DNA of 64,000 nucleotides from Paenirhodobacter populi (lineage in GTDB: Bacteria; Pseudomonadota; Alphaproteobacteria; Rhodobacterales; Rhodobacteraceae). The notes beneath the pieces are model-generated. The model was not told the origin of the DNA and searched no databases. It saw nothing but the letters and a program-made list of their open reading frames with translations. Both the position numbers and the translations under genes were made by a program. The DNA lies in NCBI RefSeq assembly GCF_004022215.1, contig NZ_SAUZ01000024.1, positions 1-64,000 of the forward strand, written 5' to 3'. Shown here in pieces: positions 7,139 through 61,702 of the stretch. Every line of letters begins with the position of its first letter. Position 1 is the first letter of the stretch.

Positions 7139-7266
7139 CCGGGGGCGCTGCCCCCGTCGATGGAAGGCCCGGCGCGGCCACGGGCCGCGCGTTCGCCGGG
7201 GCGGCCTTCCACTGGAAGGCCTCTTTTCCCGGCTCACCCCCCGGGATATTTATGGAAACACGAAAG
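7139..7266 (+). repeat. Intergenic structured repeat, copy 1 (plus orientation)
   Basis: Hairpin 1 is GGGGGCGCTGCCCCC at 7141-7155. A longer GC-rich middle follows, including GGAAGGCC-type arms, and then the conserved tail CACCCCCCGGGATATTTATG with GGAAAC at about 7234-7262. This is the longest copy, and its end reads ACGAAA where most copies read ATGAA. It lies directly after the mtaB stop. Confidence 0.75.
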
Positions 7267-7320
7267 GCAGGAAGGCCGCCCATTCTTCCCCCGCGGTTTT
7301 TCCATTGGTTTCGCGGGCCC

Positions 7321-7478
7321 AGGCTGTGTCAAAACTCAGTTCCGGCACAGCACCGGAGAATGCGGTTCTCCACAGTGGCACCTATGTTCACATCGGCGCG
7401 CGCAGATGGCCTAAGGGTGGCTTCGTGAGAGAATTTCGTTCTGAGCCACTGTCATAAAGGTGAGTTTTGACACAGCCT
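7321..7478. mobile_element. MITE-like element with perfect 18-bp terminal inverted repeats
   Basis: AGGCTGTGTCAAAACTCA at 7321-7338 is repeated exactly as its reverse complement at 7461-7478, bounding a 158-bp element with no full transposase gene. The interior has short fragments that could be the ends of a transposase frame, so it looks internally deleted. The ends resemble insertion sequences of the IS5 type, but family assignment needs a search. No clear target duplication is visible. It sits between mtaB and arfB in intergenic DNA. Confidence 0.7.
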
Positions 7479-7558
7479 CGGCCCTTTTCGGGTGAGATAC
7501 TTGTGGAAAGCAAGCGGCATATGCTGGCGCTTTCCGCTGATGCGGATAGGTTTGCGGA

Positions 7559-7981
7559 ATGCTCTGGATCAACGACACGCTGGCAATCGCCGATTGGGAA
7601 CTGACGGAAAGCTTCACCCGCGCGCAGGGGCCGGGGGGGCAGAACGTCAACAAGGTCTCGACGGCGGTGGAGCTGCGGTTCGAGGCGGACCGCTCGCCGG
7701 GGCTGACACCGGCGGTGAAGGCGCGGCTGAAGCGCATCGCCGGGCGGAAATGGACCTCGGACGGTGCCATCGTGATCCGCGCCGAGGAAACCCGCAGTCA
7801 GGCGCGCAACCGCGAACTGGCGCGCGAAAGGCTGGTGGAGATGATCCGTCAGGCCCTTGTCGCGCCGAAGCGCCGGGTGGCGACGAAGCCAACGCTTGGC
7901 AGTCAGCGGCGGCGGTTGAAGGCAAAGACCATGCGCGGCGCGGTCAAGGCATTGCGCGGAACCATAGAAGACGACCCCTAG
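7559..7981 (+). CDS. arfB: Peptidyl-tRNA hydrolase ArfB, ribosome rescue factor
   Basis: A 140-aa release-factor-like protein that hydrolyses peptidyl-tRNA on stalled ribosomes lacking a stop codon. The catalytic GGQ motif is at residues 26-28 (GPGGQNVNKVSTAVELRF is the family block). A Lys/Arg-rich C-terminal tail follows (RRRLKAKTMRGAVKALRG region), which in ArfB enters the empty mRNA channel. The absence of codon-recognition domains and the short length separate it from RF1/RF2. Upstream lies the MITE. Confidence 0.93.
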   Translation: MLWINDTLAIADWELTESFTRAQGPGGQNVNKVSTAVELRFEADRSPGLTPAVKARLKRIAGRKWTSDGAIVIRAEETRSQARNRELARERLVEMIRQALVAPKRRVATKPTLGSQRRRLKAKTMRGAVKALRGTIEDDP

Positions 7982-8038
7982 GGCCGGATTGCCCCCGATG
8001 CCTTTTCGTCAGGACCGGGCAGACCGAAACCGGGATGA

Positions 8039-9346
8039 TCAGACCACCACCGTCCGCGCCTGCTGCGGGCCGACCTCGAACACCTTGCGGTAGCGCGCGA
8101 TCTCCTCGGCCGGGCCGGTCGCCTTTTCGGGGTTGTCGGACAGTTTCACCGTTGGCCGGCCGTTCGCCGACACCGCCTTGCACACCAGACTGAAGGGCGC
8201 CAGCGCGTCATTCGGCACCAGATGGCGGAAATCGTTGGTCAGAAGCGTGCCCCAGCCGAAGCTGACCTTCACCCGCCCATGGAATCGCGCGTAGAGATCG
8301 CGGATCTCGGGCACGTCGAGCCCGTCGGAGAAGATCACCAGCTTGTCGCGCGGATCCTCGCCCCGCGATTTCCACCAGTCGATCGCCATCTCCGCCCCGG
8401 CCACCGGATCGCCGGAATCGATGCGGATGCCGGTCCAGCCAGCCAGCCAGCCGGGCGCATGGTCGAGGAACCCCTTCGTCCCGTAGGTGTCGGGCAGGAT
8501 GATCCGCAGGTTGCCGTCATGTTCCTCGTGCCAGTCGGCCAGAACGCGGTAGGGCGCCTTGCGCAATTCGTCATCCGTCTCGGCCAGCGCGGCATAGACC
8601 ATCGGCAGTTCATGGGCGTTGGTGCCCACCGCCTCAAGGTCGCGGCGCATGGCGATCAGGCAGTTCGACGTGCCGGTGAAGGCCCCGCCTTCGGAGGCGT
8701 CCCCCAGCCCCTCGATCATCGCCTGCACGCACCAGTCCTGCCACAGGAAGCTGTGCCGCCGCCGGGTGCCGAAATCGGCGATCTTGAGCCCCGGCAGCTT
8801 GCGCAGGTTCTCGATCTTTTCCCACAGGCGGGTCATCGCGCGGGCATAGAGGATCTGCAGGTCGAACCGCCCCATCCGGTTCAGCACGGCGCGGGAGCGC
8901 AGCTCCATCAGGATGGCGAGGGCGGGGATTTCCCACAGCATCACCTCGGGCCAGGCGCCCTCGAAGGTCAGCTCGTATTGCCCGTCGCGCTTTTCCAGAT
9001 GATAGGGCGGCAGGTGGACATTCTCGAACCATTCCATGAAGTCCGAGCGGAACATCTGCCGCTTGCCGTAGAAGTTGTTGCCGCGCAGCCAGGTGCTTTC
9101 GCCGCGCGTGAGCCGCAGGCCGCGGGCGTAGTCGAGCTGTTCGCGCAGCTCGCCCTCGTCGATCAGCTCGGCGAGGCGGATGGATTTCGATCGGTTGATC
9201 AGGCTGAATTCCACCCGCGTGTCGCGCTTGTTGCGGAACACCGACTGGCACATCAGCAGCTTGTAGAAATCGGTGTCGATCAGCGAGCGGACGATCGGGT
9301 CGATCTTCCATTTGTGGTTGTAGACGCGGGTTGCGATGTCGACCAT
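8039..9346 (-). CDS. pncB: Nicotinate phosphoribosyltransferase
   Basis: Converts nicotinate, PRPP and ATP to nicotinate mononucleotide in the Preiss-Handler NAD salvage pathway. The 435-aa product has the normal length. The N-terminal block [23 protein letters not shown] near the middle, [17 protein letters not shown] and [10 protein letters not shown] match the family. I place the start at ATG 9346 ([10 protein letters not shown]), six bases before the end of pncA; a GTG start a few codons upstream is also possible. It forms a two-gene operon with pncA, which supplies its substrate. Confidence 0.94.
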
Positions 9347-9351
9347 GTCCG

Positions 9352-9960: not shown

Positions 9961-10058
9961 GTCTTCCCCCTCTTTGGCATATGCCTAGGACGCGCATGCC
10001 CCCCGGTCAATTGCCGTCAGAAGGAAAGAGGCAGGGATTCGCCCCCTGCCCCGTCCGT

Positions 10059-12055: not shown

Positions 12056-12063
12056 TCTCTGTG

Positions 12064-12507: not shown

Positions 12508-12529
12508 CGTCAGCCTCCTGAAATCAGGG

Positions 12530-12563: not shown

Positions 12564-12572
12564 ATGGTCACA

Positions 12573-15848: not shown

Positions 15849-16955
15849 TCAGAGGCTCGCGTCCAGCGCGGCGACGATATGATCGCCCATGCCCGAGGTG
15901 GTGACCGGCACGCCTCCGTCCGGCCCCATCAGATCGGCGGTGCGGATGCCGTCGGCCAGAACCTTCTCGATCGCCGCTTCGATCCGCGTGGCCTCGTCCC
16001 CCTGATCGAAGGAATAGCGCAGGGCCATGGCAAAGCTGAGGATCGTGGCGATCGGGTTCGCCTTCCCCTGCCCCGCGATGTCGGGCGCCGAGCCGTGGAC
16101 GGGTTCATACATCGCCTTGGGCCGGCCATTCGCCATCGGCGCGCCGAGCGAGGCCGACGGCAGCATGCCGAGCGAGCCGGTCAGCATCGCCGCGCAATCC
16201 GAAAGGATGTCGCCGAACAGGTTGTCGGTCAGGATCACGTCGAACTGCTTGGGCGTGCGGACAAGCTGCATGGCGCAGTTGTCGGCATACATGTGGTTCA
16301 GCGCGATCTCGGGGTAATCCTCGTCGCGGATCTTCTGCACGACCTCGCGCCAAAGGATGCCGGATTCCATCACATTGGCCTTTTCGACCGAGGTGACCTT
16401 GTTGCCGCGCCGCTTCGCCAGTTCAAAGGCCGAGCGCGCCACCCGGGCGATCTGCGATTCCGTGTAACGCTGGGTGTTGATGCCGACGCGCTCGTTCCCC
16501 TCGGTGAAGATGCCGCGGGGTTCGCCGAAATAGACGCCCGAGGTCAGCTCGCGCACGATCATGATGTCGAGCCCCGCCACCACGTCGCGCTTGAGCGAGG
16601 AGAAATCCGCCAGCGCGTCGAAGCATTGCGCCGGGCGCAGGTTGGCGTAGAGGTCCATTTCCTTGCGCAGGCGCAGCAGGCCGCGTTCCGGTTTCACCGC
16701 GAAATCGAGCGTGTCGTATTTCGGCCCGCCCACGGCGCCGAGCAGCACGGCATCCACCGCCTGCGCCTTGGCCATGGTTTCATCGGTCAGTGGCACGCCA
16801 TGCGCGTCATAAGCCGCGCCACCGACGAGATCCTCGCTGACGTCGAAGACAAGGCCGCGCTTGTCGCCAAGCCAGCCGATGATCTTTTTCACCTCGGCCA
16901 TGACTTCGGGGCCGATGCCGTCACCGGCGAGGATGAGAAGGGAAGGATTGGCCAT
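15849..16955 (-). CDS. leuB: 3-isopropylmalate dehydrogenase
   Basis: A 368-aa NAD-dependent dehydrogenase that oxidises and decarboxylates 3-isopropylmalate in leucine synthesis. Typical blocks are [54 protein letters not shown], the [28 protein letters not shown] region and [24 protein letters not shown]. It is the last leu gene of the minus-strand series leuC, hdeD-like, leuD, EEP protein, leuB. Repeat copy 2 lies just upstream. Confidence 0.96.
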
Positions 16956-17047
16956 GCGTTTTCTCCTCCGACAGGGTCGGGAATGGCCTAGCCAAAGGGG
17001 CGGCGTGGGTCAAGCGCGGCGCTGTGCGGTTCACGGAGAGGAAGCAA

Positions 17048-17108
17048 GGGGGCCAGCCCCCTCGCCCGTTCCGGGCTCACCCCCGGGATATTTTCGGAAA
17101 GATGAAAA
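17048..17108 (+). repeat. Intergenic structured repeat, copy 2 (plus orientation)
   Basis: GGGGGCCAGCCCCC hairpin at 17048-17061, a second hairpin GCCCG-TTC-CGGGC, then the tail CACCCCCGGGATATTTTCGG and AAAGATGAAAA. It lies between the EEP gene and leuB, antisense to both genes. Confidence 0.8.
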
Positions 17109-17151: not shown

Positions 17152-18201
17152 TCAGGGCAGGGCCACATCGACCCAGACGAGCCGATGGCGCGAGGCGCGC
17201 GCGGCGGTTTCGCCTTCGGCGCCCGCGGGCCAGTAGACGCCCGATCCGGTGATGGTCAGATCGGATGAGGGCAGCACGTAATCCACCCGCAAACGACCGA
17301 CGGAATCGCCGTAATCCGCGGTATCCGACGATCGATCGCCTGAGTGGTCGATCCATTCTGGAAGCGGGTCGGTCATGCGGGCCATGAGCTGTTGCAAGGC
17401 GGGGCGCCTGCCCTCCCCCTTCGCCGGATCCAGGCCGATATAGCCCAGCACGATGAAGGGTCCCGGGTGTGGGGCGACCGGCAGGCGTCCCTCCTGATAG
17501 CGCAGCCAGAAGGCGGTTTCGTCATGATTGCGGCGGCCGTTGCGATCCTCGGGCCCATCGAAGACCGGCGGCGTGGCGGCGAAGGACCGGAGGCTAAGCG
17601 TGCTGCCATCGGGCAGCGTGACCGGCACATCCCAATGCGCCGTGGTCGAAAGCCGTTGCAGGGCGCGGGCCTCGGGCGTCAGATCCGCGCCGTCAATGAG
17701 AGAATCCGGCAGATCGTTCCAGAGAAAGGCGGAGAAGTCGCGCGCCTCCCCGGTCCGGATCGGCAGGCGCGACAGCAGCGCCATCCCGTCCGCGCCGGAA
17801 AACAGGCCGTAACCCTGTGCGTCGCGCGGCCCGCCCTTGCGGCCGTCGCCGTCGAGATCAAGGCCTGTCGCCATTCCCGTATTCGGCCGCGGCGCATAAA
17901 GGTGATCGTAATCCGCTCCGGCGTCGGCAAGGCGTGCCTGAAACGCGCGCAGGGCGGCGCCTTGCAGGTCCCAATCGAAGCCGGTCAGCAGCAGGATATC
18001 GGGCGAAACCCCGGCGATCACCGCCACCACGGCGTCGATCTGCCTGTCCCTGCCCGCCGTCAGATCGCGCAGCAGCAGCCCCGGCCCGTCGCGGGTCAGG
18101 GATGGGTCATAGGTTGCGATGCGGAGGGTTTCCGCCTGAACGGGCAGGACGGCCGCGCAAAGCGGCAACAGCCAGCAGAATATCCGTTTCGTCCCGATCA
18201 T
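17152..18201 (-). CDS. Exported endonuclease/exonuclease/phosphatase-fold protein, possibly catalytically degenerate
   Basis: A 349-aa protein with a signal peptide (MIGTKRIFC to VQA, about 23 residues) and the EEP fold. I chose ATG 18201 because it gives a clean signal sequence; a GTG at 18234 is in frame. Family blocks are visible: GLLLRDL, PRPNTGMATGLDLDGDGR, DAQGYGLFSG and ASRHRLVWVDV. Two sites that usually carry catalytic residues differ. The first strand reads RIATYDPSL instead of an Asn-containing RIATFN-type motif, and the GDxN motif is replaced by LGYIGLDP. It lies inside the leu gene series; function is unknown. Confidence 0.75.
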   Translation of the reverse strand: MIGTKRIFCWLLPLCAAVLPVQAETLRIATYDPSLTRDGPGLLLRDLTAGRDRQIDAVVAVIAGVSPDILLLTGFDWDLQGAALRAFQARLADAGADYDHLYAPRPNTGMATGLDLDGDGRKGGPRDAQGYGLFSGADGMALLSRLPIRTGEARDFSAFLWNDLPDSLIDGADLTPEARALQRLSTTAHWDVPVTLPDGSTLSLRSFAATPPVFDGPEDRNGRRNHDETAFWLRYQEGRLPVAPHPGPFIVLGYIGLDPAKGEGRRPALQQLMARMTDPLPEWIDHSGDRSSDTADYGDSVGRLRVDYVLPSSDLTITGSGVYWPAGAEGETAARASRHRLVWVDVALP

Positions 18202-20857: not shown

Positions 20858-21121
20858 GGCTCTCTCTCTCGATGGCTCTGGATATGATCATTCCCCACGC
20901 GGGCGCGGCGGGGCAGGGAAAGGCATGGGGCAGGGCTGCCCCGCGGACATCAAAGTCGCGCGAGGGCGGAGCGGCTTTCGCCGGTGAAGCGTTCGCTCAG
21001 GCGGACGCGTTCGGTTATGTCGAACACCACGATCATCCGGGCGATATACGCCGGCGCGCGGATTCCCGCAAGAAAATCTCGGGTCAGGGGGGCTGACCTA
21101 AGATTGTGGCGGTTTTTCTGC
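20858..21121. other. Upstream region of leuC, no gene seen
   Basis: No supportable coding frame is visible. A GGGGCAG/CTGCCCC hairpin near 20923-20938 lies about 70 bp upstream of leuC and could belong to its leader. A 28-codon minus-strand frame ending near 20950 has no recognisable family. I did not find a leucine-rich leader peptide or an attenuator with a U-run. Confidence 0.4.
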
Positions 21122-21185
21122 CGTCGTTTTTCCATAAATATCCCGGGGGTGAGGCCGAAGGCCGAGGGGGCAGCGCCCCCTTGGC
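21122..21185 (-). repeat. Intergenic structured repeat, copy 3 (minus orientation)
   Basis: Read on the minus strand: GGGGGCGCTGCCCCC, then GGCC-TTC-GGCC, then CACCCCCGGGATATTTATGG and AAAAACGA. It is back-to-back with copy 4, about 55 bp away, so the two conserved tails point outward. Confidence 0.8.
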
Positions 21186-21239
21186 GACGTTGGGTCCGGG
21201 AATCCCCGAAATCACGGAACGCGGGCGGAAAGCAGGAAA

Positions 21240-21299
21240 GGGGGCCAGCCCCCTCGCGCATGCGCGCTCACCCCCGGGATATTTAGGGAAGAATGAAGG
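21240..21299 (+). repeat. Intergenic structured repeat, copy 4 (plus orientation)
   Basis: GGGGGCCAGCCCCC, then the palindrome CGCGCATGCGCG as second stem, then CACCCCCGGGATATTTAGGG and AAGAATGAAGG. Confidence 0.8.
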
Positions 21300-21391
21300 C
21301 AGAAGACGGGATACTCGGGGTGTTCCGGTGCTGCCAAGGGTTGACAATCGGCGTCCGGTCGCGCAGGGGGCGTGATCCTTTGCGGGCTTGG

Positions 21392-21420
21392 TTGAGATTT
21401 GGCCCCCGCAATGCTACATT
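21392..21420 (+). promoter_or_regulatory. Sigma-70-type promoter of rsfS
   Basis: TTGAGA (21392-21397), a 17-nt spacer and TACATT (21415-21420). The predicted leader then contains a CCCCC/GGGGG hairpin (21429-21443) and a 19-codon upstream ORF before rsfS. Confidence 0.55.
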
Positions 21421-21473
21421 TTCAACATCCCCCGCGCCGGGGGCGGAGGCGGCGCGCGAACCTTCGGAGGACA

Positions 21474-21533
21474 ATGTCCTGTCTCATATTTCTCTCGCAT
21501 CCACGGACAGGGATGCAAAGGCGGCCCCGATGA
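21474..21533 (+). CDS. Putative 19-aa upstream ORF coupled to rsfS
   Basis: ATG 21474 lies 3 nt after a GGAGG sequence and opens a 19-codon frame (MSCLIFLSHP then RTGMQRRPR). Its TGA overlaps the rsfS ATG (ATGA at 21530-21533). The rsfS start itself has no Shine-Dalgarno sequence, so translation of rsfS may depend on termination of this uORF. The peptide sequence has no known family. Confidence 0.4.
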   Translation: MSCLIFLSHPRTGMQRRPR

Positions 21534-21889
21534 GCGATCTTGCGGGTGCCGAAGTGACGAGTGACCAGATTCTGGAGCGCGTCCTGACCTCTCTTGACGA
21601 CGACAAGGCCGAGGATGTGGTCACCATCGACCTTCGGGGCCGGTCCTCGATCGCGGATTACATGGTGATCTGTTCGGGGCGGTCCTCGCGGCAGGTGGGG
21701 GCGATCGCCGAAAAGCTCACCGAGCGGCTGAAAGAGGATTTCGGCCGGCAGAGCAAGATCGAGGGCAAGGATCAGGGCGACTGGGTGCTGATCGACACGC
21801 AGGACGTGATCGTCCATGTGTTCCGCCCCGAGGTCCGGGAGTTCTACCAGCTTGAAAAGATGTGGCTGCCGGCGGGCGGTCGGGTCTGA
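21530..21889 (+). CDS. rsfS: Ribosomal silencing factor RsfS
   Basis: A 119-aa protein of the RsfS/Iojap family that binds uL14 on the 50S subunit and blocks subunit joining in starvation. Blocks LDDDKAEDVVTIDLRGRSSIADYMVICSG (core DKAEDVVTIDLRG), RQVGAIAEKL, GDWVLIDTQDVIVHVF and REFYQLEKMW are diagnostic. Start ATG 21530 overlaps the uORF stop. It is followed by rlmH 9 bp on, the usual rsfS-rlmH pair. Confidence 0.93.
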   Translation: MSDLAGAEVTSDQILERVLTSLDDDKAEDVVTIDLRGRSSIADYMVICSGRSSRQVGAIAEKLTERLKEDFGRQSKIEGKDQGDWVLIDTQDVIVHVFRPEVREFYQLEKMWLPAGGRV

Positions 21890-21898
21890 GGCTGACGG

Positions 21899-22366
21899 AT
21901 GAAAGTGACGGTCTGCGCGGTCGGCCGGCTGCGCAAGGGTCCTGAACAGGCGCTGGCCGGGGATTACCTCGACCGTTTCAACAAGGGCGGTCGCGCGATC
22001 GGCTTTGGGCAGGCCTCGATCATCGAGGTCGAGGACAAGAAGAACCTTGGCATGGAGGCGGAGGCGGTTCTGCTGGAACGCGCCATTCCCGCCGGATCGG
22101 TTCTGGTGACGCTGGACGAGCGGGGGGATCTGGTCTCCTCGCCCGAATTCGCGGCGAAGCTGGGCGGATGGCGCGATGGCGCACGCGATGTGGCCTTTGT
22201 CATCGGCGGGGCGGACGGCATTGCGCCCGGCCTGCGCGCCAGGGCCGACTGGTCGCTGAGCTTCGGGCGCATGGTCTGGCCGCATATGCTGGTGCGGGTG
22301 ATGCTGGCGGAACAGCTTTACCGGGCGGGGCAGATTTTGGCCGGGACGCCCTATCACCGGGTCTAG
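21899..22366 (+). CDS. rlmH: 23S rRNA (pseudouridine1915-N3)-methyltransferase
   Basis: A 155-aa SPOUT methyltransferase that methylates m3-pseudouridine 1915 in helix 69. It begins MKVTVCAVGRL and ends LYRAGQILAGTPYHRV, the typical C-terminal knot motif. VTLDERGDLVSSPEFA and FVIGGADGIAP form the SAM-binding part. Normal length. Operon with rsfS. Confidence 0.95.
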   Translation: MKVTVCAVGRLRKGPEQALAGDYLDRFNKGGRAIGFGQASIIEVEDKKNLGMEAEAVLLERAIPAGSVLVTLDERGDLVSSPEFAAKLGGWRDGARDVAFVIGGADGIAPGLRARADWSLSFGRMVWPHMLVRVMLAEQLYRAGQILAGTPYHRV

Positions 22367-22411
22367 AGCGGCTTCAGAACCGCGGTCTTTGGCCTGCGTG
22401 GACAGGTCGGC

Positions 22412-22477
22412 AGGGGGCCAGCCCCCTCTTTGCCTTACGGCAAATTCACCCCCGGGATATTTAAGGAAAGATGAAAG
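22412..22477 (+). repeat. Intergenic structured repeat, copy 5 (plus orientation)
   Basis: GGGGGCCAGCCCCC at 22413-22426, second hairpin TTGCC-TTAC-GGCAA, tail CACCCCCGGGATATTTAAGG and AAAGATGAAAG. It is located between rlmH and gpmI. Confidence 0.8.
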
Positions 22478-22623
22478 AGATCATCCGATGGGGCGGTTTT
22501 GAAGCGCCCTTCGGAGCGCCCAGCCATGCGTTCACCGGGATATGCGGACGCGGGGGCCTTAGTGCTGTTGCCGCATCGCGCGTAGCGGCGTAAGACGGGG
22601 GCGATAATTCCGTGGAGGCTGCG

Positions 22624-24144
22624 ATGACCCGTCCGAAACCCGTTGTCCTGTGCATTCTTGACGGCTGGGGCGAACGTGCCGAGACCGAGGGCAATGCCCC
22701 CGCTCAGGCGAATACACCGAACCTCGACAGGATCTGGACGACCTGCCCGAAATCGACGCTGATCACCTTTGGCCCGGATGTCGGCCTGCCGACCGGGCAG
22801 ATGGGCAATTCCGAGGTCGGGCACACCAATATCGGCGCGGGCCGGGTGGTGGCGATGGATCTGGGACAGATCGATCTGGCGATCGAGGATGGATCCTTCT
22901 TCGAGAACGAGGCGATCCTTTCCTTCATCGACGCGGTGAAGACCGCGGGCGGGCGGGCGCATCTGATGGGCGTGATCTCGAACGGCGGGGTGCATGGGCA
23001 TATCGAGCATGTGCTGGCGGCGTGCCGGATGATCGCCGGGGCAGGGGTGCCGGTCGTCGTTCATGCGATCACCGACGGGCGCGACGTGGCGCCGGATTCC
23101 TCCGCCGCTTTCATCGACGATTTTGCCGCCCGCCTGCCGGAAGGAGCGACCATCGGCACGGTCATCGGCCGCTACTGGGCGATGGACCGCGACAACCGCT
23201 GGGAACGGGTGGGCCGCGCCTATGACGCGATCGTGAAGGGTGAGGGGCTGCACGCCGCCACGCCCGCCGAAGCGGTGGCGCAATCCTATGCGCTGAAGGA
23301 AATGGACGAATTCATCCAGCCCACCGTCATCGGCGATTATGCGGGCACAAAGGATGGCGACGGGTTCTTCTGCCTCAACTTCCGCGCCGACCGGGCGCGG
23401 GAAATCCTGCGCGCGCTGGCAGAGCCGGGTTTTGGAGAGCTGGACACCTCCGCCCGGCCGGAATGGTCGGCGATGCTGGGCATGGTCGAATATTCCTCGG
23501 GCCACAACGCCTATATGGCCACCGCCTATCCGAAACGCGATCTGGTCAACACGCTTGGCGAATGGGTCTCGAAACAGGGTCTGACGCAGTTCCATTGCGC
23601 CGAGACCGAGAAATATCCCCATGTGACCTTCTTCCTGAATGGCGGGCGCGAGGAGCCGTGGACGGGCGAGGATCGCTTCATGCCGAAATCGCCGAAAGTG
23701 GCGACCTATGACCTGCAACCGGAAATGAGCGCCCCGGAGGTGACGGATCAGTTCGTCGGCGCGATCGAGAAGGGCTACGACCTGATCGTGGTGAACTATG
23801 CCAACCCCGACATGGTGGGCCATACCGGCAGCCTGCCCGCCGCCATCGCCGCCTGCGAGGAAATCGACCGCGACATCGGCCGGGTTCTGGCGGCGCTGAA
23901 ACAGGCGGGCGGGGCGATGATCATCACCGCCGACCACGGCAATTGCGAAACCATGATCGACCCGGAAACCGGCAAGCCGCATACCGCGCATACGACCAAC
24001 CTTGTGCCCGTGGCGCTGGTCGGCGGGCCCGAGGGCGTCACGTTGCGCGACGGACGGCTGGCCGATCTGGCACCGACGCTTCTGGACCTGATGCAACTGC
24101 CCGTCCCGCCCGAGATGACCGGCAAGACGCTGATCCGGCGCTGA
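22624..24144 (+). CDS. gpmI: 2,3-bisphosphoglycerate-independent phosphoglycerate mutase
   Basis: A 506-aa alkaline-phosphatase-superfamily mutase interconverting 2- and 3-phosphoglycerate. Metal Asp13 is in LCILDGWGER and the phosphorylated Ser63 in MGNSEVGHTNIG. Later ligands appear in NYANPDMVGHTG and TADHGNCE. GGAGG lies 6 nt before ATG 22624, which I prefer to the GTG at 22612. Ten bases later the envC-like gene starts, forming a conserved alphaproteobacterial block with ctpA. Confidence 0.95.
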   Translation: MTRPKPVVLCILDGWGERAETEGNAPAQANTPNLDRIWTTCPKSTLITFGPDVGLPTGQMGNSEVGHTNIGAGRVVAMDLGQIDLAIEDGSFFENEAILSFIDAVKTAGGRAHLMGVISNGGVHGHIEHVLAACRMIAGAGVPVVVHAITDGRDVAPDSSAAFIDDFAARLPEGATIGTVIGRYWAMDRDNRWERVGRAYDAIVKGEGLHAATPAEAVAQSYALKEMDEFIQPTVIGDYAGTKDGDGFFCLNFRADRAREILRALAEPGFGELDTSARPEWSAMLGMVEYSSGHNAYMATAYPKRDLVNTLGEWVSKQGLTQFHCAETEKYPHVTFFLNGGREEPWTGEDRFMPKSPKVATYDLQPEMSAPEVTDQFVGAIEKGYDLIVVNYANPDMVGHTGSLPAAIAACEEIDRDIGRVLAALKQAGGAMIITADHGNCETMIDPETGKPHTAHTTNLVPVALVGGPEGVTLRDGRLADLAPTLLDLMQLPVPPEMTGKTLIRR

Positions 24145-40662: not shown

Positions 40663-41727
40663 ATGGACGACCAGACCAGATTGCTGTCCGACCTCAATGA
40701 ACGCTCGCGTGAAGTCTTTCGCCGGGTGGTCGAGGGCTATCTGGAAACCGGGGATCCGGTCGGATCGCGCACCCTGACCCGGCAGTTCAGCGAAAAGCTG
40801 TCCGCCGCGACGATCCGCAATGTGATGCAGGACCTTGAATACATGGGGCTTCTGGGCAGCCCGCATGTTTCCGCCGGACGGGTTCCGACGCAGCTGGGCC
40901 TGCGGATCTTCGTCGACGGCTTCATGGAGATGAGCGAGCTTCACGCCCGGGACCGACAGGCGCTGGAGGCGACACTGGGCGAAAGCGACCCGGATGTCGG
41001 CTCGCTGCTCGATCGGGTCAGCGGCGCGCTGTCGGGGCTGACGCATGGGGCGAGCATCGTTCTGGCGCCGAAACACGAAGCGGCGATCCGGCATATCGAA
41101 TTCGTCTCGCTCGGGCCTGACAGGGCGCTGGTGGTGCTGGTCTTTGCTGACGGACAGGTCGAAAATCGCGTATTCACTCCGCCGCCGGGGCAGACGCCGT
41201 CCTCGATGCGCGAGGCGGCGAATTTCCTCAACGCACTGGCCGAGGGGCTGACGCTCGCCGACCTGCGCAAGCAGATCACGGCCGAGATCGCCTCGCGCCG
41301 GCAGGAACTGGATACGCTCGCCTCGGCGCTGGTCGAAAGCGGTCTGGCGCAATGGGCCGACAAGGGCGAGTCCTATGAACGGCTGATCGTGCGCGGCCAG
41401 TCGAACCTTCTGGATGCCGAGGGCGATATCGACCGGGTCCGCAGCCTGTTCGACGATCTGGAACGCAAGCGCGACATCGCCGAATTCCTCGATCTGACCG
41501 AGAAAGGCGACGGTGTGCGCATTTTTATCGGCTCGGAGAACAAGCTTTTTTCACTTTCGGGTTCCTCTGTCGTCGTCTCTCCCTATATGAACGCTGAACG
41601 CAAGATCATCGGGGCGATAGGGGTTATCGGGCCGACACGGCTCAACTACGGACGCATCGTGCCGATCGTGGATTTCACGGCGCAGCTTGTCGGGCGCGTT
41701 CTGTCCGGCAAAAGGGTAGGACCATGA
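40663..41727 (+). CDS. hrcA: Heat-inducible transcription repressor HrcA
   Basis: A 354-aa repressor of class I heat-shock genes. The winged helix opens [20 protein letters not shown] and includes [33 protein letters not shown] (core [13 protein letters not shown]). Middle GAF-like and C-terminal domains end in [26 protein letters not shown]. ATGs at 40642, 40651 and 40663 are in frame. The predicted transcription start near 40650 leaves 40663, or a leaderless 40651. I see no CIRCE inverted repeat nearby. ATGA overlap with grpE. Confidence 0.93.
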
Positions 41728-42272
41728 GTGAAAAGAAAGACGAGATGCTCGAAGATCAGGAGCAACTGAACGAACCGCTGGCCGAAGATTCGGTGGACGA
41801 AAGCGGTGAACTGGAAACGCTGCGCGCCGAGCGGGATGAATTCAGGGATCGGTTCATGCGGGCGCTGGCGGATGCCGAGAATGCCCGCAAGCGCGCCGAC
41901 CGCGACCGCCGCGAGGCGGAAAACTACGGTGGCTCGAAACTGGCGCGCGACATGCTGCCGGTGTTCGACGCGCTGAACCGCGCGCTGGATGCGGCGGGCG
42001 AGGATGTGCGCGCCGCGGCCCCCGCGCTGATCGAGGGCGTGGAACTGACGCAGCGCGAACTGCTGAACGTCTTCAAGCGCCACGGCATCGTCGCCATCAC
42101 GCCCGTGGTCGGCGACCGTTTCGATCCGCAGCATCACGAGGCGATGTTCGAGGCGCCGGTTCCCGGCACCAAGGCGGGCGACATCATTCAGGTGATGGAC
42201 AACGGCTTCATGCTGCATGACCGGCTGCTGCGTCCGGCGAAGGTCGGCGTGAGTTCCACACCGAAAAGCTGA
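41724..42272 (+). CDS. grpE: Nucleotide exchange factor GrpE
   Basis: A 182-aa DnaK co-chaperone. An acidic N-terminus and a long coiled coil (LRAERDEFRDRFMRALADAENARKR core) precede the beta domain. NYGGSKLARDMLPVFDALNRAL (core LARDMLPVFDALNRA) and GDRFDPQHHEAMFE then VMDNGFMLHDRLLRPAKVGVS are diagnostic. Coupled to hrcA by ATGA. Confidence 0.95.
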   Translation: MSEKKDEMLEDQEQLNEPLAEDSVDESGELETLRAERDEFRDRFMRALADAENARKRADRDRREAENYGGSKLARDMLPVFDALNRALDAAGEDVRAAAPALIEGVELTQRELLNVFKRHGIVAITPVVGDRFDPQHHEAMFEAPVPGTKAGDIIQVMDNGFMLHDRLLRPAKVGVSSTPKS

Positions 42273-42285
42273 CCGATGGCGGGCG

Positions 42286-42354
42286 GGGGGCGCTGCCCCC
42301 ATCCTTGCGGCAAAGCCGCAAGGATTCCCCCGGGATATTTATGGAAGAATGAAG
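42286..42354 (+). repeat. Intergenic structured repeat, copy 6 (plus orientation)
   Basis: GGGGGCGCTGCCCCC (42286-42300), second hairpin ATCCTTGCGGC-AAA-GCCGCAAGGAT with an 11-bp perfect stem (42301-42325), tail CCCCCGGGATATTTATGG and AAGAATGAAG. It lies between the convergent grpE and mutS stops. Confidence 0.8.
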
Positions 42355-42355: not shown

Positions 42356-44995
42356 TCAGGGGGCTTCCTTCAGGAGCCCCCTGAGTTCGTAAAGCGCCTC
42401 CATCGCCTGTTTCGGCGTCATCTCGTCGGGATGGAGGGTGCGCAGGCGCTCCTCGACCTTCGACGGTGCGGCGGGCGCGGGCGCCGGTTTCGCCACCGAG
42501 AACAGCGGCAGGTCGTCGATCACCATCTGCTTCTTCGACCCACCCTCGCGGTCGCCGGTTTCCAGCGCGTCGAGAACGATCCGCGCCCGTGACACGACCG
42601 AGGCGGGCAGGCCCGCCAGTTGCGCCACCTGCACGCCGTAGCTGCGATCCGCTGCGCCCTTGCGCACCTCGTGCAGGAAGATCACCTCGCCTTCCCATTC
42701 CTTGACGCTGACGGTGGCGTTTTCCACGCCGTCGAGCTTGCGGGCGAGTGCGGTCATTTCGTGGTAATGCGTGGCGAAAAGCGCGCGGCAGCGGTTCGCG
42801 CCGTGCAGATGTTCCAGCACCGCCCAGGCGATCGACAGCCCGTCATAGGTGGCCGTGCCGCGCCCGATTTCATCCAGAATAACCAGCGCCCTGTCATCCG
42901 CTTGATTGAGAATTGCCGCGGTTTCCACCATTTCCACCATAAAGGTGGAACGTCCCCGCGCCAGATCGTCCGCCGCGCCGACGCGGCTGAAAAGCTGGCT
43001 CACCAGCCCGATATGCGCGCGCCGCGCGGGAACGAAGCTGCCCGCCTGCGCCAGTAGGGCGATCAGCGCGTTCTGCCGCAGGAAGGTGGATTTCCCCGCC
43101 ATGTTCGGCCCGGTCAGCAGCCAGATCGCCGGCGTGGCGCCGGAGGTCAGGCCACAGTCGTTGGCGATGAAGGATTCACCCCGGCGTTTCAGCGAGGCCT
43201 CGACAACCGGGTGACGGCCGCCTTCCACCTCGAAGGCGCGGCTTTCGTCGATCAGCGGCTCGACCCAATCCTCCCCGGCGGCAAGATCGGCGAAAGCCGT
43301 GGCAAGGTCGATTTCGGCAAGCGCCCGGGCCGCCTCGCCGATCGGACCGGCATGGGCGAGGATCGCGGATTTCAGGCTGTCATACAGGCGTTTTTCAATC
43401 TCCAGCGCATGGGCGCCGGCGTTCAGGATGCGGGTTTCCAGCTCGCTCAGTTCCAGCGTGGTGAAGCGCACCTGATTGGCGGTCGTCTGCCGGTGGATGA
43501 ACCGTTCCGACAGGGGCGGCGCCAGCATCCGTTCTGCATGGGTCGCCGTCGTCTCGATGAAATAGCCCAGCACGTTGTTGTGCTTGATCTTCAGCGAGGA
43601 AATCCCGGTGTCCCCGATATACTGCGCCTGCATCCCGGCGATGACGCCGCGCCCTTCGTCGCGCAGCTGCCGCGTCCGGTCCAGTTCCGTATCATAGCCC
43701 GCCGCGATGAAGCCGCCATCGCGTGCCAGCAAGGGCGGCTCGGCCACCAGCGCGGCATCCAGCAGCGCCACGAGGTCCTCATGCCCGGTCAGGGCGCGGG
43801 CCGCCTCGGTCAGCAGGGCGGGCGCGTCCGGGGGCAGCCGCCCGGCGATATGCCCCGCCTGCGTCAGCGCCGCCCGGATCGAAACCATGTCGCGCGGCCC
43901 GCCCCGGTCCAGCGCCAGCCGCCCGAGCGCGCGGTCCATATCCGGCGCGCGCTTCAGATCGGCGCGCAGATCCTCGCAAAAGCGGCTCTGTTCCAGCAGA
44001 AAACGCACCGCATCGTGCCGCGCGCGGATCTGTGCCAGATCGCGCGACGGCGCCGAGATCCGCCGTTCCAGCAGCCGCGCGCCCCCCGCCGTCACCGTCC
44101 GGTCGATCACCGACAGCAGCGATCCCTCGCGCCCGCCCGACAGCGCCTGCGTCAGTTCCAGATTGCGCCGGGTGGCGGCGTCGATCTGCATCAGGGCGCC
44201 GGCTTCCTCGCGCACCGGGCGGCGCAGCAGCGGCAGCTTGCCCCGCTGCGTCAGGTCCAGATAATCGACGATCGCCCCAAGCGCCGAGACCTCGGCCCGC
44301 GAGAACCCGCCGAAAGCGTCGAGCGAGCCGATCCCGTAAAGATCCAGCAGCCGCTTTTCCGCCCCCTGACTGTCGAAGCCCGCGCGCGGCACCACCGTCA
44401 GCGCGACGCGCATATCCTCGGTCACGGGGCGGCAGTCGGCCTCGCGCATTTCACCCACCAGCAGCTCGCGCGGGGCGAGCCGCGCCAGCTCCGCCCCCAG
44501 CCGCACCAGAGGACAGGGCATCACCCGGATCTCGCCCGTGGAAATGTCGACCCAGGCCAGCGCGCCTTCGTCCCGCACCTCGCCCCAGGCGGCGAGGAAG
44601 TTGTTGCGCCGCGCTTCCAGCAGGCTGTCCTCGGTCAGGGTCCCCGGCGTCACCAGCCGCACCACGTCGCGCTTCACCACGGATTTGGAGCCGCGCTTCT
44701 TCGCCTCGGCCGGGTCTTCCATCTGCTCGGCGATGGCGACGCGGAAGCCCTTGCGGATCAGCGTCAGCAGATACCCCTCGGCGGCAAAGACCGGCACGCC
44801 GCACATCGGGATGTCCTGGTCCAGATGCTTGCCGCGTTTCGTCAGCGCGATGTCCAGCGCCGCCGATGCCGCCACGGCATCCTCAAAGAACATTTCGTAG
44901 AAATCGCCCATCCGGTAGAACAGCAGTGCCCCCGGGTTCGCCTCTCTGATCGCCAGATATTGTGCCATCATCGGCGTGACTGTCGGTTCGGTCAT
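42356..44995 (-). CDS. mutS: DNA mismatch repair protein MutS
   Basis: An 879-aa mismatch sensor. The N-terminal mismatch motif is FYRMGDFYEMFFEDA (Phe-x-Glu). Connector, lever and clamp domains are full length. The ABC ATPase has TGPNMAGKSTFLRQ, LILDEIGRGTATYDG-type Walker B (VILDEIGRGT) and FATHYHEM. The C-terminal segment DEMTPKQAMEALYELRGL is the usual tetramer/MutL end. It stands alone, convergent with grpE. Confidence 0.96.
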   Translation of the reverse strand: MTEPTVTPMMAQYLAIREANPGALLFYRMGDFYEMFFEDAVAASAALDIALTKRGKHLDQDIPMCGVPVFAAEGYLLTLIRKGFRVAIAEQMEDPAEAKKRGSKSVVKRDVVRLVTPGTLTEDSLLEARRNNFLAAWGEVRDEGALAWVDISTGEIRVMPCPLVRLGAELARLAPRELLVGEMREADCRPVTEDMRVALTVVPRAGFDSQGAEKRLLDLYGIGSLDAFGGFSRAEVSALGAIVDYLDLTQRGKLPLLRRPVREEAGALMQIDAATRRNLELTQALSGGREGSLLSVIDRTVTAGGARLLERRISAPSRDLAQIRARHDAVRFLLEQSRFCEDLRADLKRAPDMDRALGRLALDRGGPRDMVSIRAALTQAGHIAGRLPPDAPALLTEAARALTGHEDLVALLDAALVAEPPLLARDGGFIAAGYDTELDRTRQLRDEGRGVIAGMQAQYIGDTGISSLKIKHNNVLGYFIETTATHAERMLAPPLSERFIHRQTTANQVRFTTLELSELETRILNAGAHALEIEKRLYDSLKSAILAHAGPIGEAARALAEIDLATAFADLAAGEDWVEPLIDESRAFEVEGGRHPVVEASLKRRGESFIANDCGLTSGATPAIWLLTGPNMAGKSTFLRQNALIALLAQAGSFVPARRAHIGLVSQLFSRVGAADDLARGRSTFMVEMVETAAILNQADDRALVILDEIGRGTATYDGLSIAWAVLEHLHGANRCRALFATHYHEMTALARKLDGVENATVSVKEWEGEVIFLHEVRKGAADRSYGVQVAQLAGLPASVVSRARIVLDALETGDREGGSKKQMVIDDLPLFSVAKPAPAPAAPSKVEERLRTLHPDEMTPKQAMEALYELRGLLKEAP

Positions 44996-50476: not shown

Positions 50477-50484
50477 ATCAATCC

Positions 50485-56638: not shown

Positions 56639-56648
56639 GCCATGTTCC

Positions 56649-58028: not shown

Positions 58029-58099
58029 GGCTTCGCCTCCATTCGCGCTACATATGCGCCCTTGTAACGCGGTCACTCTAGAGGGCAGTTCCCTTTCAC

Positions 58100-58801: not shown

Positions 58802-58856
58802 CGCGGTCCCGGGATTGCAGGGTGACTGCCCCGGTGTTACCTGCGAAGAACAAGCC

Positions 58857-59966
58857 ATGCAACAAATGCCCATGACCCGCGCTCTGACCTTCCTTGGCAT
58901 CGAATCGAGCTGCGACGACACCGCCGCCGCCGTCGTCCGCATGGGCGACGCGGGGCCGGAGATCCTGTCCTCGGTCGTCGCGGGGCAATATGCGCTGCAT
59001 GAGGCCTATGGCGGCGTCGTGCCGGAAATCGCCGCCCGCGCCCATGCCGAGAAGCTGGACATCTGCGTCGAAAGCGCGCTGGCCGAGGCCGGGGTGCAGC
59101 TGGACGATCTGGATGGCGTCGCGGTGACGGCGGGGCCGGGGCTGATCGGCGGGGTGATGTCGGGCGTGATGTGCGCCAAGGGCATCGCCGCCGGGGCGGG
59201 GCTGCCGCTTGTCGGCGTCAACCATCTGGCGGGCCATGCGCTGACGCCGCAACTGACGGACGGGCTGGCCTTTCCCTATCTGCTGCTGCTGGTCTCGGGC
59301 GGGCATTGCCAGTTCCTGATCGTGCGCGGCGCGGATGATTTCACCCGCATCGGCGGCACCATCGACGACGCGCCGGGCGAGGCCTTCGACAAGACGGCAA
59401 AGCTTCTGGGCCTGCCGCAGCCGGGCGGCCCGGCGGTCGAGGCCGAGGCGGCCGAGGGCGATCCGAAGGCGTTCCACTTTCCGCGCCCGCTGCTGGACCG
59501 GCCGGGCTGTGACATGTCGTTTTCGGGGCTGAAGACCGCGCTGCTGCGTGCCCGCGACGGGGCGATGGCCGCGCGGGGCGGGCTGACGCGGCAGGACCGC
59601 GCCGATCTGTGCGCGGGCTTTCAGGCCGCCGTCTGCGATGTGCTGGCGGAAAAGACCCGCCGGGCGCTGAGCGAATATCTGGCGCTGTCCCCGGCCGAAC
59701 CGGCGATCGCCGTGGCCGGCGGCGTTGCCGCGAACAAGGCGATCCGCGCGCGGCTGGAACAGGTCGCGGCCGGGGTGGGCGCGCGCTTTGCCGCGCCGCC
59801 CCTGCGGCTGTGCACCGACAATGCGGCGATGATCGCCTATGCCGGGCTGCGGCGGTTCCAGCTTGGCCACCGCGACGGGATGGATCTGTCGGCACGGCCG
59901 CGCTGGCCCCTGGATCAGGGGGCACCGGCGATGCTCGGCTCGGGCAAGAAGGGGGCGAAGGCATGA
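58857..59966 (+). CDS. tsaD: tRNA N6-adenosine threonylcarbamoyltransferase
   Basis: A 369-aa TsaD/Kae1 protein that transfers threonylcarbamoyl to A37. It opens [15 protein letters not shown], has the metal motif [17 protein letters not shown] and the [11 protein letters not shown] block. ATGs at 58857, 58866 and 58872 are in frame; [11 protein letters not shown] from 58872 is equally possible. MtaB at 5885 acts on the t6A this enzyme makes. ATGA overlap with gpsA. Confidence 0.94.
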
Positions 59967-60916
59967 CGGTGACCATTCTGGGGGCAGGGGCCTTTGGCAC
60001 GGCGCTGGCGATCACGCTGGCGCAGAACGGGGCGGTGAGCCTTTGGGCGCGCGACGCCGCGCGGGTCGAGGAAATGAACCGCACCCGCCGCAATGACCGT
60101 CGTCTGCCGATGGCGGAACTGCCGGAGAACGTTGCCGTCACGGCGGATATCGACGCGGCGCTGACGGAAACCGTGCTGCTGGCGATGCCGATGCAGCAGA
60201 TGGGCGGCTTCCTGCGCGAACATCGGGCGCGGCTGGACGGGCGCACGCTGGTCGCCTGTTCCAAGGGGATCGACCTTGCCACCGGCCACGGGCCGACGGC
60301 GCTGATCCATGCGACCTGCCCCGGCGCGCGGGCGGCGATCCTGACCGGGCCGAGCTTTGCCGCCGATATCGCGCGCGGCCTGCCCACGGCGCTGACGCTC
60401 GCCTGCGATACGGATGACGCGGCCTTGCAGGAACGGCTGTCGACGCCGACCCTGCGGATCTACCGCACCACCGACACCACGGGGGCGGAGCTGGGCGGCG
60501 CGCTGAAAAACGTCATCGCCATCGCCGCGGGCGTGGTGACGGGGGCGGAGCTGGGCGATTCCGCCCGCGCCGCGCTGATGACGCGGGGGTTCGCCGAAAT
60601 GACCCGGCTGGCGATCCGCCTTGGCGCGCGGCCCGAGACGCTGGCGGGCCTCTCGGGCTTTGGCGATCTGGTGCTGACCTGCACCTCGCCCCTGTCGCGC
60701 AACTTCCGGTTCGGTCAGGCGCTTGGTCAGGGCGAGGGGTTCGACCCCGAAACCACGGTCGAGGGCGTCGCCACCGCGAAAGCCGTGGTGACCCTTGCCG
60801 GAAATCTTGGTATCGAGATGCCGGTCGCCGAGGTGGTGGCGGATCTGTCCGATCACCGCGTCACGGTGGCCGAGGCCATGCACGCGCTGTTGTCGCGCCC
60901 GCTCAAGGAGGAATGA
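59963..60916 (+). CDS. gpsA: Glycerol-3-phosphate dehydrogenase [NAD(P)+]
   Basis: A 317-aa enzyme making sn-glycerol 3-phosphate for phospholipids. NAD motif [38 protein letters not shown], catalytic Lys in [12 protein letters not shown] and [22 protein letters not shown] (core [12 protein letters not shown]) are intact. Coupled to tsaD by ATGA and 1 bp from the YciI-like gene. Confidence 0.95.
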
Positions 60917-60917
60917 G

Positions 60918-61187
60918 ATGTATTTCGTGCTGAACTGCCGTGACAAGGAAGGCGCGCTGCAAACGCGGCTCGACAACCGGGACAGGCACCTGGCCTATGC
61001 CCGCGAAAGCGGCGTGGTCTTTGTCGGCGGCCCGCTGATCGAGAATGGCGGCATGGTCGGCTCACTGGTGATCATCGAGGTCGAGGATCTGGCCGCGGCG
61101 CAGGCCTTTGCCGCCGAGGATCCCTATGCCAAGGCCGGGCTGTTCGAAAGCGTCACCATCAGCGAATGGAAGAAGGTCATCAGCTGA
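60918..61187 (+). CDS. YciI-like protein
   Basis: An 89-aa YCII-domain protein (dimeric ferredoxin-like fold). MYFVLNCRDKEGAL, the RDRHLAYARE helix with the conserved His, FVGGPL and DPYAKAGLFESVTISEW are family blocks. AGGAGGAATGAG precedes the ATG. Its stop shares one base with the EVE-domain start. Function in most bacteria is unknown. Confidence 0.9.
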   Translation: MYFVLNCRDKEGALQTRLDNRDRHLAYARESGVVFVGGPLIENGGMVGSLVIIEVEDLAAAQAFAAEDPYAKAGLFESVTISEWKKVIS

Positions 61188-61606
61188 TGGCGAAATGGCT
61201 GTTCAAGTCCGAACCGGATGTCTTTTCCTGGGACGATCTGGTGGCGAAGGGCGCGGCGGGCGAGCAGTGGGACGGCGTCCGCAACTACCTTGCGCGCAAC
61301 AACATGCGGGCGATGAAGATCGGCGAGCAGGGGTTCTTCTACCATTCCAATCAGGGCAAGGAGATCGTCGGCATCGCCGAGGTCTGCGCGCTCGCCCATC
61401 ACGACACGACGACAGACGACCCGCGTTGGGACTGTGTCGATATCCGCGCCGTCCGCCCGGTGGCGCGGCCGGTGACGCTGGCCGAGGTGAAGGCCGAACC
61501 CCGGCTGTCACAGATGGCGCTGGTCACCTCGATGCGGCTGTCGGTGCAGCCGGTGACCGAAGAGGAATGGCGGATCGTCTGCGAGATGGCGGGGATCGAG
61601 CCTTGA
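61187..61606 (+). CDS. EVE-domain (PUA-like) protein
   Basis: A 139-aa single-domain protein: WLFKSEPDVFSWDDL, WDGVRNYLARNNMRAMKIGEQGFFYHSN (core GVRNYLARNNMRAM), EIVGIAEV and the MRLSVQPVTEEEW end. EVE domains are related to YTH and PUA readers and are thought to bind modified nucleobases; the eukaryotic counterpart is THYN1. Tight coupling with YciI and gpsA recurs in alphaproteobacteria. A specific ligand cannot be named. Confidence 0.92.
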   Translation: MAKWLFKSEPDVFSWDDLVAKGAAGEQWDGVRNYLARNNMRAMKIGEQGFFYHSNQGKEIVGIAEVCALAHHDTTTDDPRWDCVDIRAVRPVARPVTLAEVKAEPRLSQMALVTSMRLSVQPVTEEEWRIVCEMAGIEP

Positions 61607-61639
61607 AGGCATATCTTGCCTCTCGCGCGAATCTCTTCC

Positions 61640-61702
61640 CCTTCATTCTTCCACAAATATCCCGGGGGTGAGCCCGGGACGGGCGAGGGGGCAGCGCCCC
61701 CT
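61640..61702 (-). repeat. Intergenic structured repeat, copy 7 (minus orientation)
   Basis: Minus strand GGGGGCGCTGCCCCC, second hairpin GCCCG-TC-CCGGGC, tail CACCCCCGGGATATTTGTGG and AAGAATGAAGG. It lies after the EVE gene, in antisense orientation to it. Confidence 0.8.

What the first reader, a model, noticed from the sequence alone, without database searches (positions are those of the whole stretch)
7139..61702. Seven-copy intergenic element with covarying second hairpin
Copies at 7139-7266 (+), 17048-17108 (+), 21122-21185 (-), 21240-21299 (+), 22412-22477 (+), 42286-42354 (+) and 61640-61702 (-) share a plan. First comes a GGGGGC(GCT or CA)GCCCCC hairpin, then a second hairpin, then a tail close to CACCCCCGGGATATTT followed by GGAA and usually ATGAA. 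The second hairpin has a different sequence in each copy (GCCCG/CGGGC, CGCGCATGCGCG, TTGCC/GGCAA, an 11-bp stem in copy 6) but keeps pairing. That is compensatory change, the mark of a selected RNA or DNA structure. The tail CCCCC could alternatively pair with the GGGGG of hairpin 1, allowing a switch. All copies are intergenic, in both orientations to neighbours. I know of similar tails in Rhodobacterales intergenic DNA but no described family name.
Basis: partly seen in the sequence, partly recalled or inferred. Interest (0 to 1): 0.78.

Follow-up and report, generated by a model that had tools for sequence, protein, structure and literature searches.

The report
Gene-end repeats built like DNA triplexes
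Hundreds of short intergenic repeats in this Rhodobacter-like bacterium and its relatives carry a hairpin plus a third stretch whose changes mirror the hairpin's, which is what a folded three-stranded DNA would leave; they sit mostly at the ends of genes, and what they do there is not yet known.

Summary
The seven copies are real and belong to a large family: 315 exact CCCCCGGGATATTT tails in the 4.78-Mb genome, none of the reversed control; a pattern of hairpin 1 plus tail hits 161 of 292 Rhodobacterales genomes. Hairpin 2 covaries. The proposed switch, the tail C-run pairing with hairpin 1's G-run, is not supported. In 48 distinct copies from other genera whose hairpin 1 holds A-T pairs, the tail mirrors hairpin 1's 3' arm: T or A at the mirror position of 47 of 49 A-T pairs, C opposite 258 of 260 G-C pairs; one copy fits a direct repeat. 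Mirror symmetry is not Watson-Crick; it is the rule of an intrastrand triplex, the kind known as PIT/BoxC/TM elements (PMC4666352). Hairpin 2, or a spacer of about 3 nt, links second and third strands. Copies sit at gene 3' ends in both orientations (in 42 of 58 convergent, 4 of 106 divergent gaps of 100 bp or more) and come and go. I read them as a dispersed intrastrand-triplex DNA repeat, possibly a two-way polymerase barrier. Folding in the cell and function are inferred.

The parts
7141..7251 (+). copy 1 (long subtype): hairpin 1 7141-7155, linker 7156-7236 with further hairpins, C-run 7237-7242, GGGATATTT 7243-7251; starts 2 bp after the end of a Radical_SAM/UPF0004 gene (5885-7138 +)
17047..17093 (+). 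copy 2: hairpin 1 17047-17062, linker with hairpin 2 17063-17079, third-strand C-run 17080-17084, GGGATATTT 17085-17093; antisense between an Exo_endo_phos gene (17152-18201 -) and an Iso_dh gene (15849-16955 -); the gap lacks the element in the 16 relatives readable there
21136..21181 (-). copy 3: hairpin 1 21165-21181, linker with hairpin 2 21150-21164, third-strand C-run 21145-21149, GGGATATTT 21136-21144; divergent gap between an Aconitase-family and an RsfS gene
21239..21284 (+). copy 4: hairpin 1 21239-21254, linker with hairpin 2 21255-21270, third-strand C-run 21271-21275, GGGATATTT 21276-21284; same divergent gap as copy 3, heads facing
22412..22462 (+). copy 5: hairpin 1 22412-22427, linker with hairpin 2 22428-22448, third-strand C-run 22449-22453, GGGATATTT 22454-22462; sense, upstream of an iPGM gene (22624-24144 +)
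42285..42340 (+). copy 6: hairpin 1 42285-42300, linker with 11-bp hairpin 2 42301-42326, third-strand C-run 42327-42331, GGGATATTT 42332-42340; convergent gap between a GrpE gene (41724-42272 +) and a MutS gene (42356-44971 -)
61655..61702 (-). copy 7: hairpin 1 61686-61702, linker with hairpin 2 61669-61685, third-strand C-run 61664-61668, GGGATATTT 61655-61663; antisense, upstream of a CbiX gene (61935-62639 +)

Best explanation
Each copy is a dispersed repeat that can fold, on one DNA strand, into an intrastrand triplex. The G-run and C-run of hairpin 1 form a homopurine.homopyrimidine Watson-Crick stem. The tail C-run (a G-run on the other strand) is the mirror image of that stem and is its third strand. 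Hairpin 2, whose sequence is free but whose pairing is kept, or a spacer of about 3 nt, only ties the second strand to the third. On the G-rich strand this is the purine motif (G.G-C, A.A-T or T.A-T; order third strand-purine-pyrimidine, class I of Holder et al.), on the C-rich strand the pyrimidine motif (class III). Shown here: mirror rule in variant copies, agreeing run lengths, hairpin-2 covariation, gene-end placement in both orientations, absence from the same gaps in relatives. Inferred: that the plain-G copies of the window obey the rule their variants show, that the triplex forms in the cell, that the DNA strand rather than an RNA folds, and the effect, which I take to be stalling of polymerases at gene ends from either side, so that read-through between neighbouring genes is limited. 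My confidence is about 0.8 that the triplex rule is the constraint, 0.6 for DNA rather than RNA, 0.3 for the barrier function.
For: Mirror rule: patterns that fixed only hairpin 1 with an A-T pair and the GGGATATTT tail, in 292 genomes each (hits in 2, 17 and 12 genera, 26 different ones). In the 48 distinct copies read, the mirror position is T 33, A 14, C 2 of 49; the direct-repeat position, where it differs, is C 43, G 1, T 1 of 45; opposite G is C 258 of 260 (Fisher p 1e-50, which treats copies as independent although relatives are not). Run lengths of G arm, C arm and third strand: 4/4/4 in 7, 5/5/5 in 72, 6/6/6 in 2 of 91 own copies; 5/5/5 in 74 and 6/6/6 in 22 of 149 elsewhere. In the flanks of the 35 copies printed I saw no other Watson-Crick partner for the tail (by eye). 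Hairpin 1 stays purine/pyrimidine: a C-interrupted version gave 4 hits in 292 genomes; two are hairpin 2 of ordinary copies and the other two lack the third strand. Purine-motif code (A or T for A-T) fits 47 of 49, the pyrimidine code (T only) 33 of 49 (codes as given in PMC4666352). DNA rather than RNA: 0 G.T and 3 A.C mismatches inside 186 hairpin-2 stems, 1 G.U in 140 cells, 3-nt loops in 123 of 184 stems. Gene ends: 50 convergent, 40 codirectional, 5 divergent of 95 placed own copies against intergenic length shares 0.173, 0.491, 0.336.
Against: No structure probing or expression data. The E. coli relatives (PIT/TM_ECO) showed no terminator activity and no in-vivo footprint of a triplex (PMC4666352). 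One copy (L330) fits a direct repeat and one (L334) has neither base. The window's seven copies and all copies counted have plain G-runs, where mirror and direct repeat cannot be told apart; 53 of those 240 do not have three equal runs of 4, 5 or 6 or 7. In the GGGGGT-loop-ACCCCC class the third strand goes on with GT, which could pair Watson-Crick with loop CAC instead. Among codirectional gaps the element is sense in 24 of 40 own and 61 of 104 other cases, pooled p 0.037, a weak strand bias that an RNA role would also give. Fold energies are not striking for two of three window copies tested, as DNA (z -1.0 to -2.2) or as RNA (z -0.1 to -1.3); copy 6 stands out (z -3.6 to -4.5).
Confidence: 0.6

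Rival explanations
1. A REP/BIME-like selfish repeat: it spreads as folded single-stranded DNA and is merely tolerated at gene ends; the triplex serves its own copying, not the host.
For: Copy number 19-354 among 18 genomes of one genus; three gaps holding four window copies are without the element in the relatives readable there (16, 7 and 17 genomes), and none of the 17 fetched orthologous regions holds an exact GGGATATTT tail after a pyrimidine run; 22 plus-minus pairs 46-80 bp apart, tails facing, in G010; near absence from divergent gaps is what selection against promoter damage gives.
Against: No Y1_Tnp/RAYT gene in the own genome (5 of 14 control genomes positive); no other mobiliser was looked for; two to three bases after ATATTT vary while neighbours are nearly fixed, which looks like constraint rather than fresh copying; a similar stretch lies between folD and purU in two Paracoccus records.
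Confidence: 0.35
2. An RNA device: the C-rich strand is transcribed at mRNA 3' ends and folds into a hairpin with a pyrimidine-motif triple helix (or a triple-helix pseudoknot) that ends or protects the transcript.
For: Weak sense bias, 85 of 144; hairpins and an AU-rich tail soon after stop codons; T opposite A-T in 33 of 49; possible loop pairing in the GGGGGT class.
Against: 59 of 144 codirectional copies are antisense to their neighbours; A opposite A-T in 14 of 49 does not fit the pyrimidine motif; G.U pairs almost absent; RNA fold z-scores of two of three window copies are ordinary; five or more adjacent protonated C are unfavourable at neutral pH (general knowledge).
Confidence: 0.25
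3. One reading: the tail C-run alternatively pairs Watson-Crick with the hairpin-1 G-run.
For: Possible on paper for plain-G copies, including the window's seven; run lengths go together.
Against: Asymmetric variants are mirror-symmetric; the direct-repeat position is C in 43 of 45.
Confidence: 0.03
4. Ordinary intrinsic terminators.
For: Gene-end position; copies whose hairpin 2 ends in CGGG can form a hairpin right before ATATTT, and the folds of copy 7 show it. My terminator scan was positive at 25 of 123 gene ends beside elements and 22 of 226 without.
Against: 18 of the 22 same-strand hits overlap the element itself, mostly the CGGG class; other hairpin-2 classes lack that hairpin; the tail has no U-tract; both orientations are used.
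Confidence: 0.12

Closest known systems
PIT / BoxC / TM_ECO intrastrand triplex repeats (Holder et al. 2015, PMC4666352, and the older work it cites)
   Same: Short intergenic repeat, no clear strand preference, homopurine stem plus third strand on one strand, also found as close inverted pairs, copy number varying sharply between relatives, many sites changed or lost between strains.
   Different: TM_ECO runs pyrimidine, purine, third strand (class II); here the G-rich strand runs third strand, purine, pyrimidine (class I). The linker is a covarying hairpin, longer than the 1-6-nt loops of their search. TM_ECO lies more often upstream of ORFs at no set distance; here copies lie close to stop codons. 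The main text does not contain Rhodobacter, Roseobacter, Paracoccus or Ruegeria; its supplements and database could not be read.
REP/BIME elements with RAYT (TnpA-REP)
   Same: Intergenic palindromic repeat in hundreds of copies, singles and inverted pairs, avoids promoters (REP features from memory).
   Different: No Y1_Tnp in this genome; mirror third strand; different tail.
Rho-independent terminators
   Same: GC hairpin after stop codons.
   Different: Two hairpins, then C-run and GGGATATTT in place of a U-tract; both orientations.

Membership tests
Intrastrand triplex repeats (PIT/TM kind) | Watson-Crick homopurine.homopyrimidine stem plus tethered third strand matching the triplex code | tested here: met
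   47 of 49 A-T pairs and 258 of 260 G-C pairs obey the purine code in 48 variant copies from other genera; the window's copies have plain G-runs, so the code is met but the orientation is not tested there
   window copies have C-runs of 5-6 and linkers of 15-81 nt; short-linker relatives (GGA, GCA, GCG) do meet the loop limit
Intrastrand triplex repeats (PIT/TM kind) | forms a triplex in vitro or in vivo | not testable with these tools
   needs CD/NMR or chemical footprinting
TM_ECO / BoxC | consensus CCCTCNCCC-N3-6-GGGNGAGGG-N3-GGGNGAGGG | tested here: not met
   different order and sequence (consensus, element; compared by eye)
REP elements | RAYT (Y1_Tnp) in the genome | tested here: not met
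   PF01797: 0 matches in the own genome, 5 of 14 control genomes positive
Rho-independent terminator | hairpin followed by a U-tract | tested here: not met
   tail is CCCCCGGGATATTTNNGG; scan hits that overlap elements come mostly from one hairpin-2 class
Any Rfam family | covariance-model match | tested here: not met
   only two tRNAs in the window at gathering score; none up to E 5 in 21100-22520

The most novel reading that the evidence does not exclude
This is comparative, covariation-type evidence that an intrastrand DNA triplex folds in living bacteria and is kept by selection: across some two dozen Rhodobacterales genera, changes in a hairpin's purine arm are matched by mirror-placed changes in a third strand, in a repeat that marks many hundreds of gene ends, where the triplex acts as a two-way boundary for polymerases.
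Probability: 0.35. Interest if true: 0.88.

Novelty: new variant of a known kind. Interest (0 to 1): 0.66.

Why it matters
Whether intrastrand triplex repeats fold in cells is open: the E. coli work found a stable triplex in vitro but no footprint in vivo (PMC4666352). Here evolution supplies an independent test: three-strand covariation with the right code and the right symmetry, over a bacterial order. It gives ready-made natural variants for a direct experiment, and it marks a common gene-end element for which my searches found no description.

Tried and rejected
Watson-Crick switch: rejected on the mirror result. RAYT-driven REP: Y1_Tnp absent. Rfam: nothing. Replichore polarity: contig 1 of G064 looked biased (8+/1- below 1.1 Mb, 2+/9- at 1.6-2.4 Mb) and the G014 list seemed very biased, but that list was cut short and leaves out minus places: 20 sampled stretches of G014 hold 9 plus and 10 minus exact tails (my notebook entry gives other figures, which are wrong). 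I make no claim. Terminators: one search suggested more canonical terminators on the element's strand; one search showed that 18 of 22 were the element itself. RNA tetraloops (UNCG) as an RNA sign: 1 of 53 four-nt loops. Gene calls: two earlier home-made models were poor and their context counts are not used; one search is used for this genome (84% of bases in called genes) and a retrained copy for other genomes (82%). Papers: exact-sequence and keyword searches found no description of the family. Of PMC4666352 I saw the abstract and outline, passages (66), the first of two parts of the introduction (67), four sections whole and the first of two parts of the discussion (73). All other papers I saw as search listings only.
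Full report
What is there. The seven copies are exact. The plan is: hairpin 1, linker (hairpin 2), a C-run, GGGATATTT, two free bases, then GGAA. The whole genome holds 315 exact CCCCCGGGATATTT (0 reversed controls) and 354 CCCGGGATATTT. In one search all 18 genomes of the genus have the 12-mer, 19 to 354 copies; 7 other genomes of the family have 0 to 72, and 16 genomes of other families 0 to 5. A pattern of hairpin 1 plus tail hits 161 of 292 genomes of the order, this genome having 287 and the next 57. The window's genus probably holds Paenirhodobacter enshiensis: contig length 466,805 is shared by G003 and NZ_JFZB01000005.1; this rests on the length alone.

Hairpin 2 covaries. On 28 distinct linkers of equal length, 90.0% of cells pair (shuffled mean 53.4), 45 cells change on both sides (18.9) and the score is 0.770 (0.216); 0 of 500 shuffles reach these three. 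Two further measures are not above the shuffles (pairs with a double change 5 against 4.8, further pair types 8 against 7.9). Sliding by 1-3 columns drops the score to 0.183 or less. The linkers come from this genome and others; relatedness is not modelled. Mismatches are few and not of the wobble kind: inside 186 stems 0 G.T, 3 A.C and 7 others (41 of 227 linkers had no stem by that rule and were left out); one G.U among 140 cells.

The tail run is a third strand. In copies with plain G-runs the lengths of G arm, C arm and tail run mostly agree: 4/4/4 in 7, 5/5/5 in 72, 6/6/6 in 2 of 91 own copies; elsewhere 5/5/5 in 74 and 6/6/6 in 22 of 149, with 16 at 5/5/6-8 and the rest scattered. Plain runs cannot tell a direct repeat from a mirror, so I looked for hairpin 1 with an A-T pair off-centre, fixing nothing in the tail but GGGATATTT: GGGAGC/GCTCCC (9 places in 2 of 292 genomes), GAGGGC/GCCCTC (27 places in 21 genomes, 17 genera), GGGGAC/GTCCCC (40 places in 17 genomes, 12 genera, 35 of them listed). 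I read 55 of the 71 listed places as loci; 48 are distinct in the matched letters, the 7 repeats were dropped. T or A is at the mirror position of 47 of 49 A-T pairs; where the direct-repeat position differs, it is C in 43 of 45; opposite G stands C in 258 of 260. By eye, 33 of the 35 places listed have T directly before GGGATATTT. Exceptions: L330 fits a direct repeat, L334 has no T. I saw no other Watson-Crick partner in the flanks printed; below the G-run, two bases often extend hairpin 1 and covary with the linker (CC/GG, GC/GC, CT/AG, TT/AA, by eye), leaving one base, usually A, before the third strand. A control with a C inside the purine arm gave 4 places in 292 genomes, none a hairpin 1 with third strand. 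A T-interrupted control was not run.

Which strand. The C-rich strand would use the pyrimidine motif (T for A-T, C for G-C), the G-rich strand the purine motif (A or T for A-T, G for G-C); these codes are as stated in PMC4666352. 47 of 49 fit the purine code, 33 of 49 the pyrimidine code. In one search all 7 GAGGGC copies with a hairpin linker have A, the 14 with a short linker T in 10 and A in 4. In copies whose hairpin 1 ends in an A-T pair the base before the C-run is A in 74 and T in 9 of 83, though that may be one subfamily's consensus. The same paper says purine-motif triplexes cannot form in RNA. With the lack of wobble pairs and the 3-nt loops (123 of 184 stems) this favours DNA, but not decisively.

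A class that does not fit simply. GGGGGT-TTCAC-ACCCCC with tail CCCCC-GT occurs in 51 of 292 genomes, 29 genera. G opposite T-A is a pyrimidine-motif triplet that I recall and did not check, but GT(G) can also pair with loop CAC; among 20 loci, 19 have a loop with CAC and GT or TGT, and one has CGC and GC. In the list a second CGC copy also has GC, but at least two CAC copies have GC too.

Where it sits. By my gene model on 823 kb of this genome, 95 of 96 copies fall between two called genes (the other is at a contig end): 50 convergent, 40 codirectional (24 sense, 16 antisense), 5 divergent, against length shares 0.173, 0.491, 0.336; 42 of 58 convergent gaps of 100 bp or more hold one, 32 of 154 codirectional, 4 of 106 divergent (p-values). 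The head often starts 0-60 bp after a stop. Of 215 copies in other genomes 183 could be placed: 104 codirectional (61 sense, 43 antisense), 70 convergent, 9 divergent. In five plasmid records with a similar stretch it lies outside listed genes, in either orientation (their gene tables are incomplete). The window itself is not typical: four codirectional, two divergent, one convergent.

Gain and loss. In the three gaps compared, holding four window copies, the relatives readable there (16, 7 and 17 genomes) show no element; the orthologous gap is shorter in all 16 of the first and in 6 of 7 of the second. None of the 17 fetched regions holds an exact tail. G010 has 22 plus-minus pairs 46-80 bp apart, and the tails of the pairs looked at repeat each other in inverse. 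No Y1_Tnp gene was found.

What it most likely is. The kind is known: intrastrand triplex repeats, PIT/BoxC and TM motifs. The variant differs in strand order, in the hairpin used as linker, in gene-end placement and in host group. New in substance is the evidence: three-strand covariation in nature. What it does is the weak part. A two-way polymerase barrier fits the placement and the reported block of DNA polymerase in vitro by PIT elements, but those elements showed no terminator activity and no effect on RNA polymerase, and a selfish repeat tolerated at gene ends explains the placement as well.

Noticed in passing
L304, L307, L308, L312, L318, L320, L323: A second module in other Rhodobacterales genomes: CCTCCGGC followed by GGGATATTT and AGAAGAAG, with no G-run hairpin; 7 of the 30 loci read.
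   Followed up: no
51 of 292 order genomes, two copies in the own genome: A subclass GGGGGTTTCACACCCCC-GGA/GCA-CCCCCGTGGGATATTT, strikingly uniform across 29 genera, whose GTG may pair with the loop CAC.
   Followed up: partly
G010 and G014; L368, L380, L384, L387, L392: Facing elements 46-80 bp apart; the tail NNGGCAAGATGAA is one arm of an inverted repeat, the two free bases matching in three of the five cases looked at.
   Followed up: partly
window 7156-7236 and C1 copies: A long subtype with extra hairpins in the linker (CTTCCACTGGAAG core).
   Followed up: no
G064 contig 1: Element orientation follows chromosome halves (8+/1- then 2+/9-); its sister G065 looks alike; other genomes were not tested systematically.
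   Followed up: partly
bases before hairpin 1 of own-genome copies: The bases before hairpin 1 are G-rich and partly conserved in this genome (GCGGAGAGGNNGCA-like).
   Followed up: no
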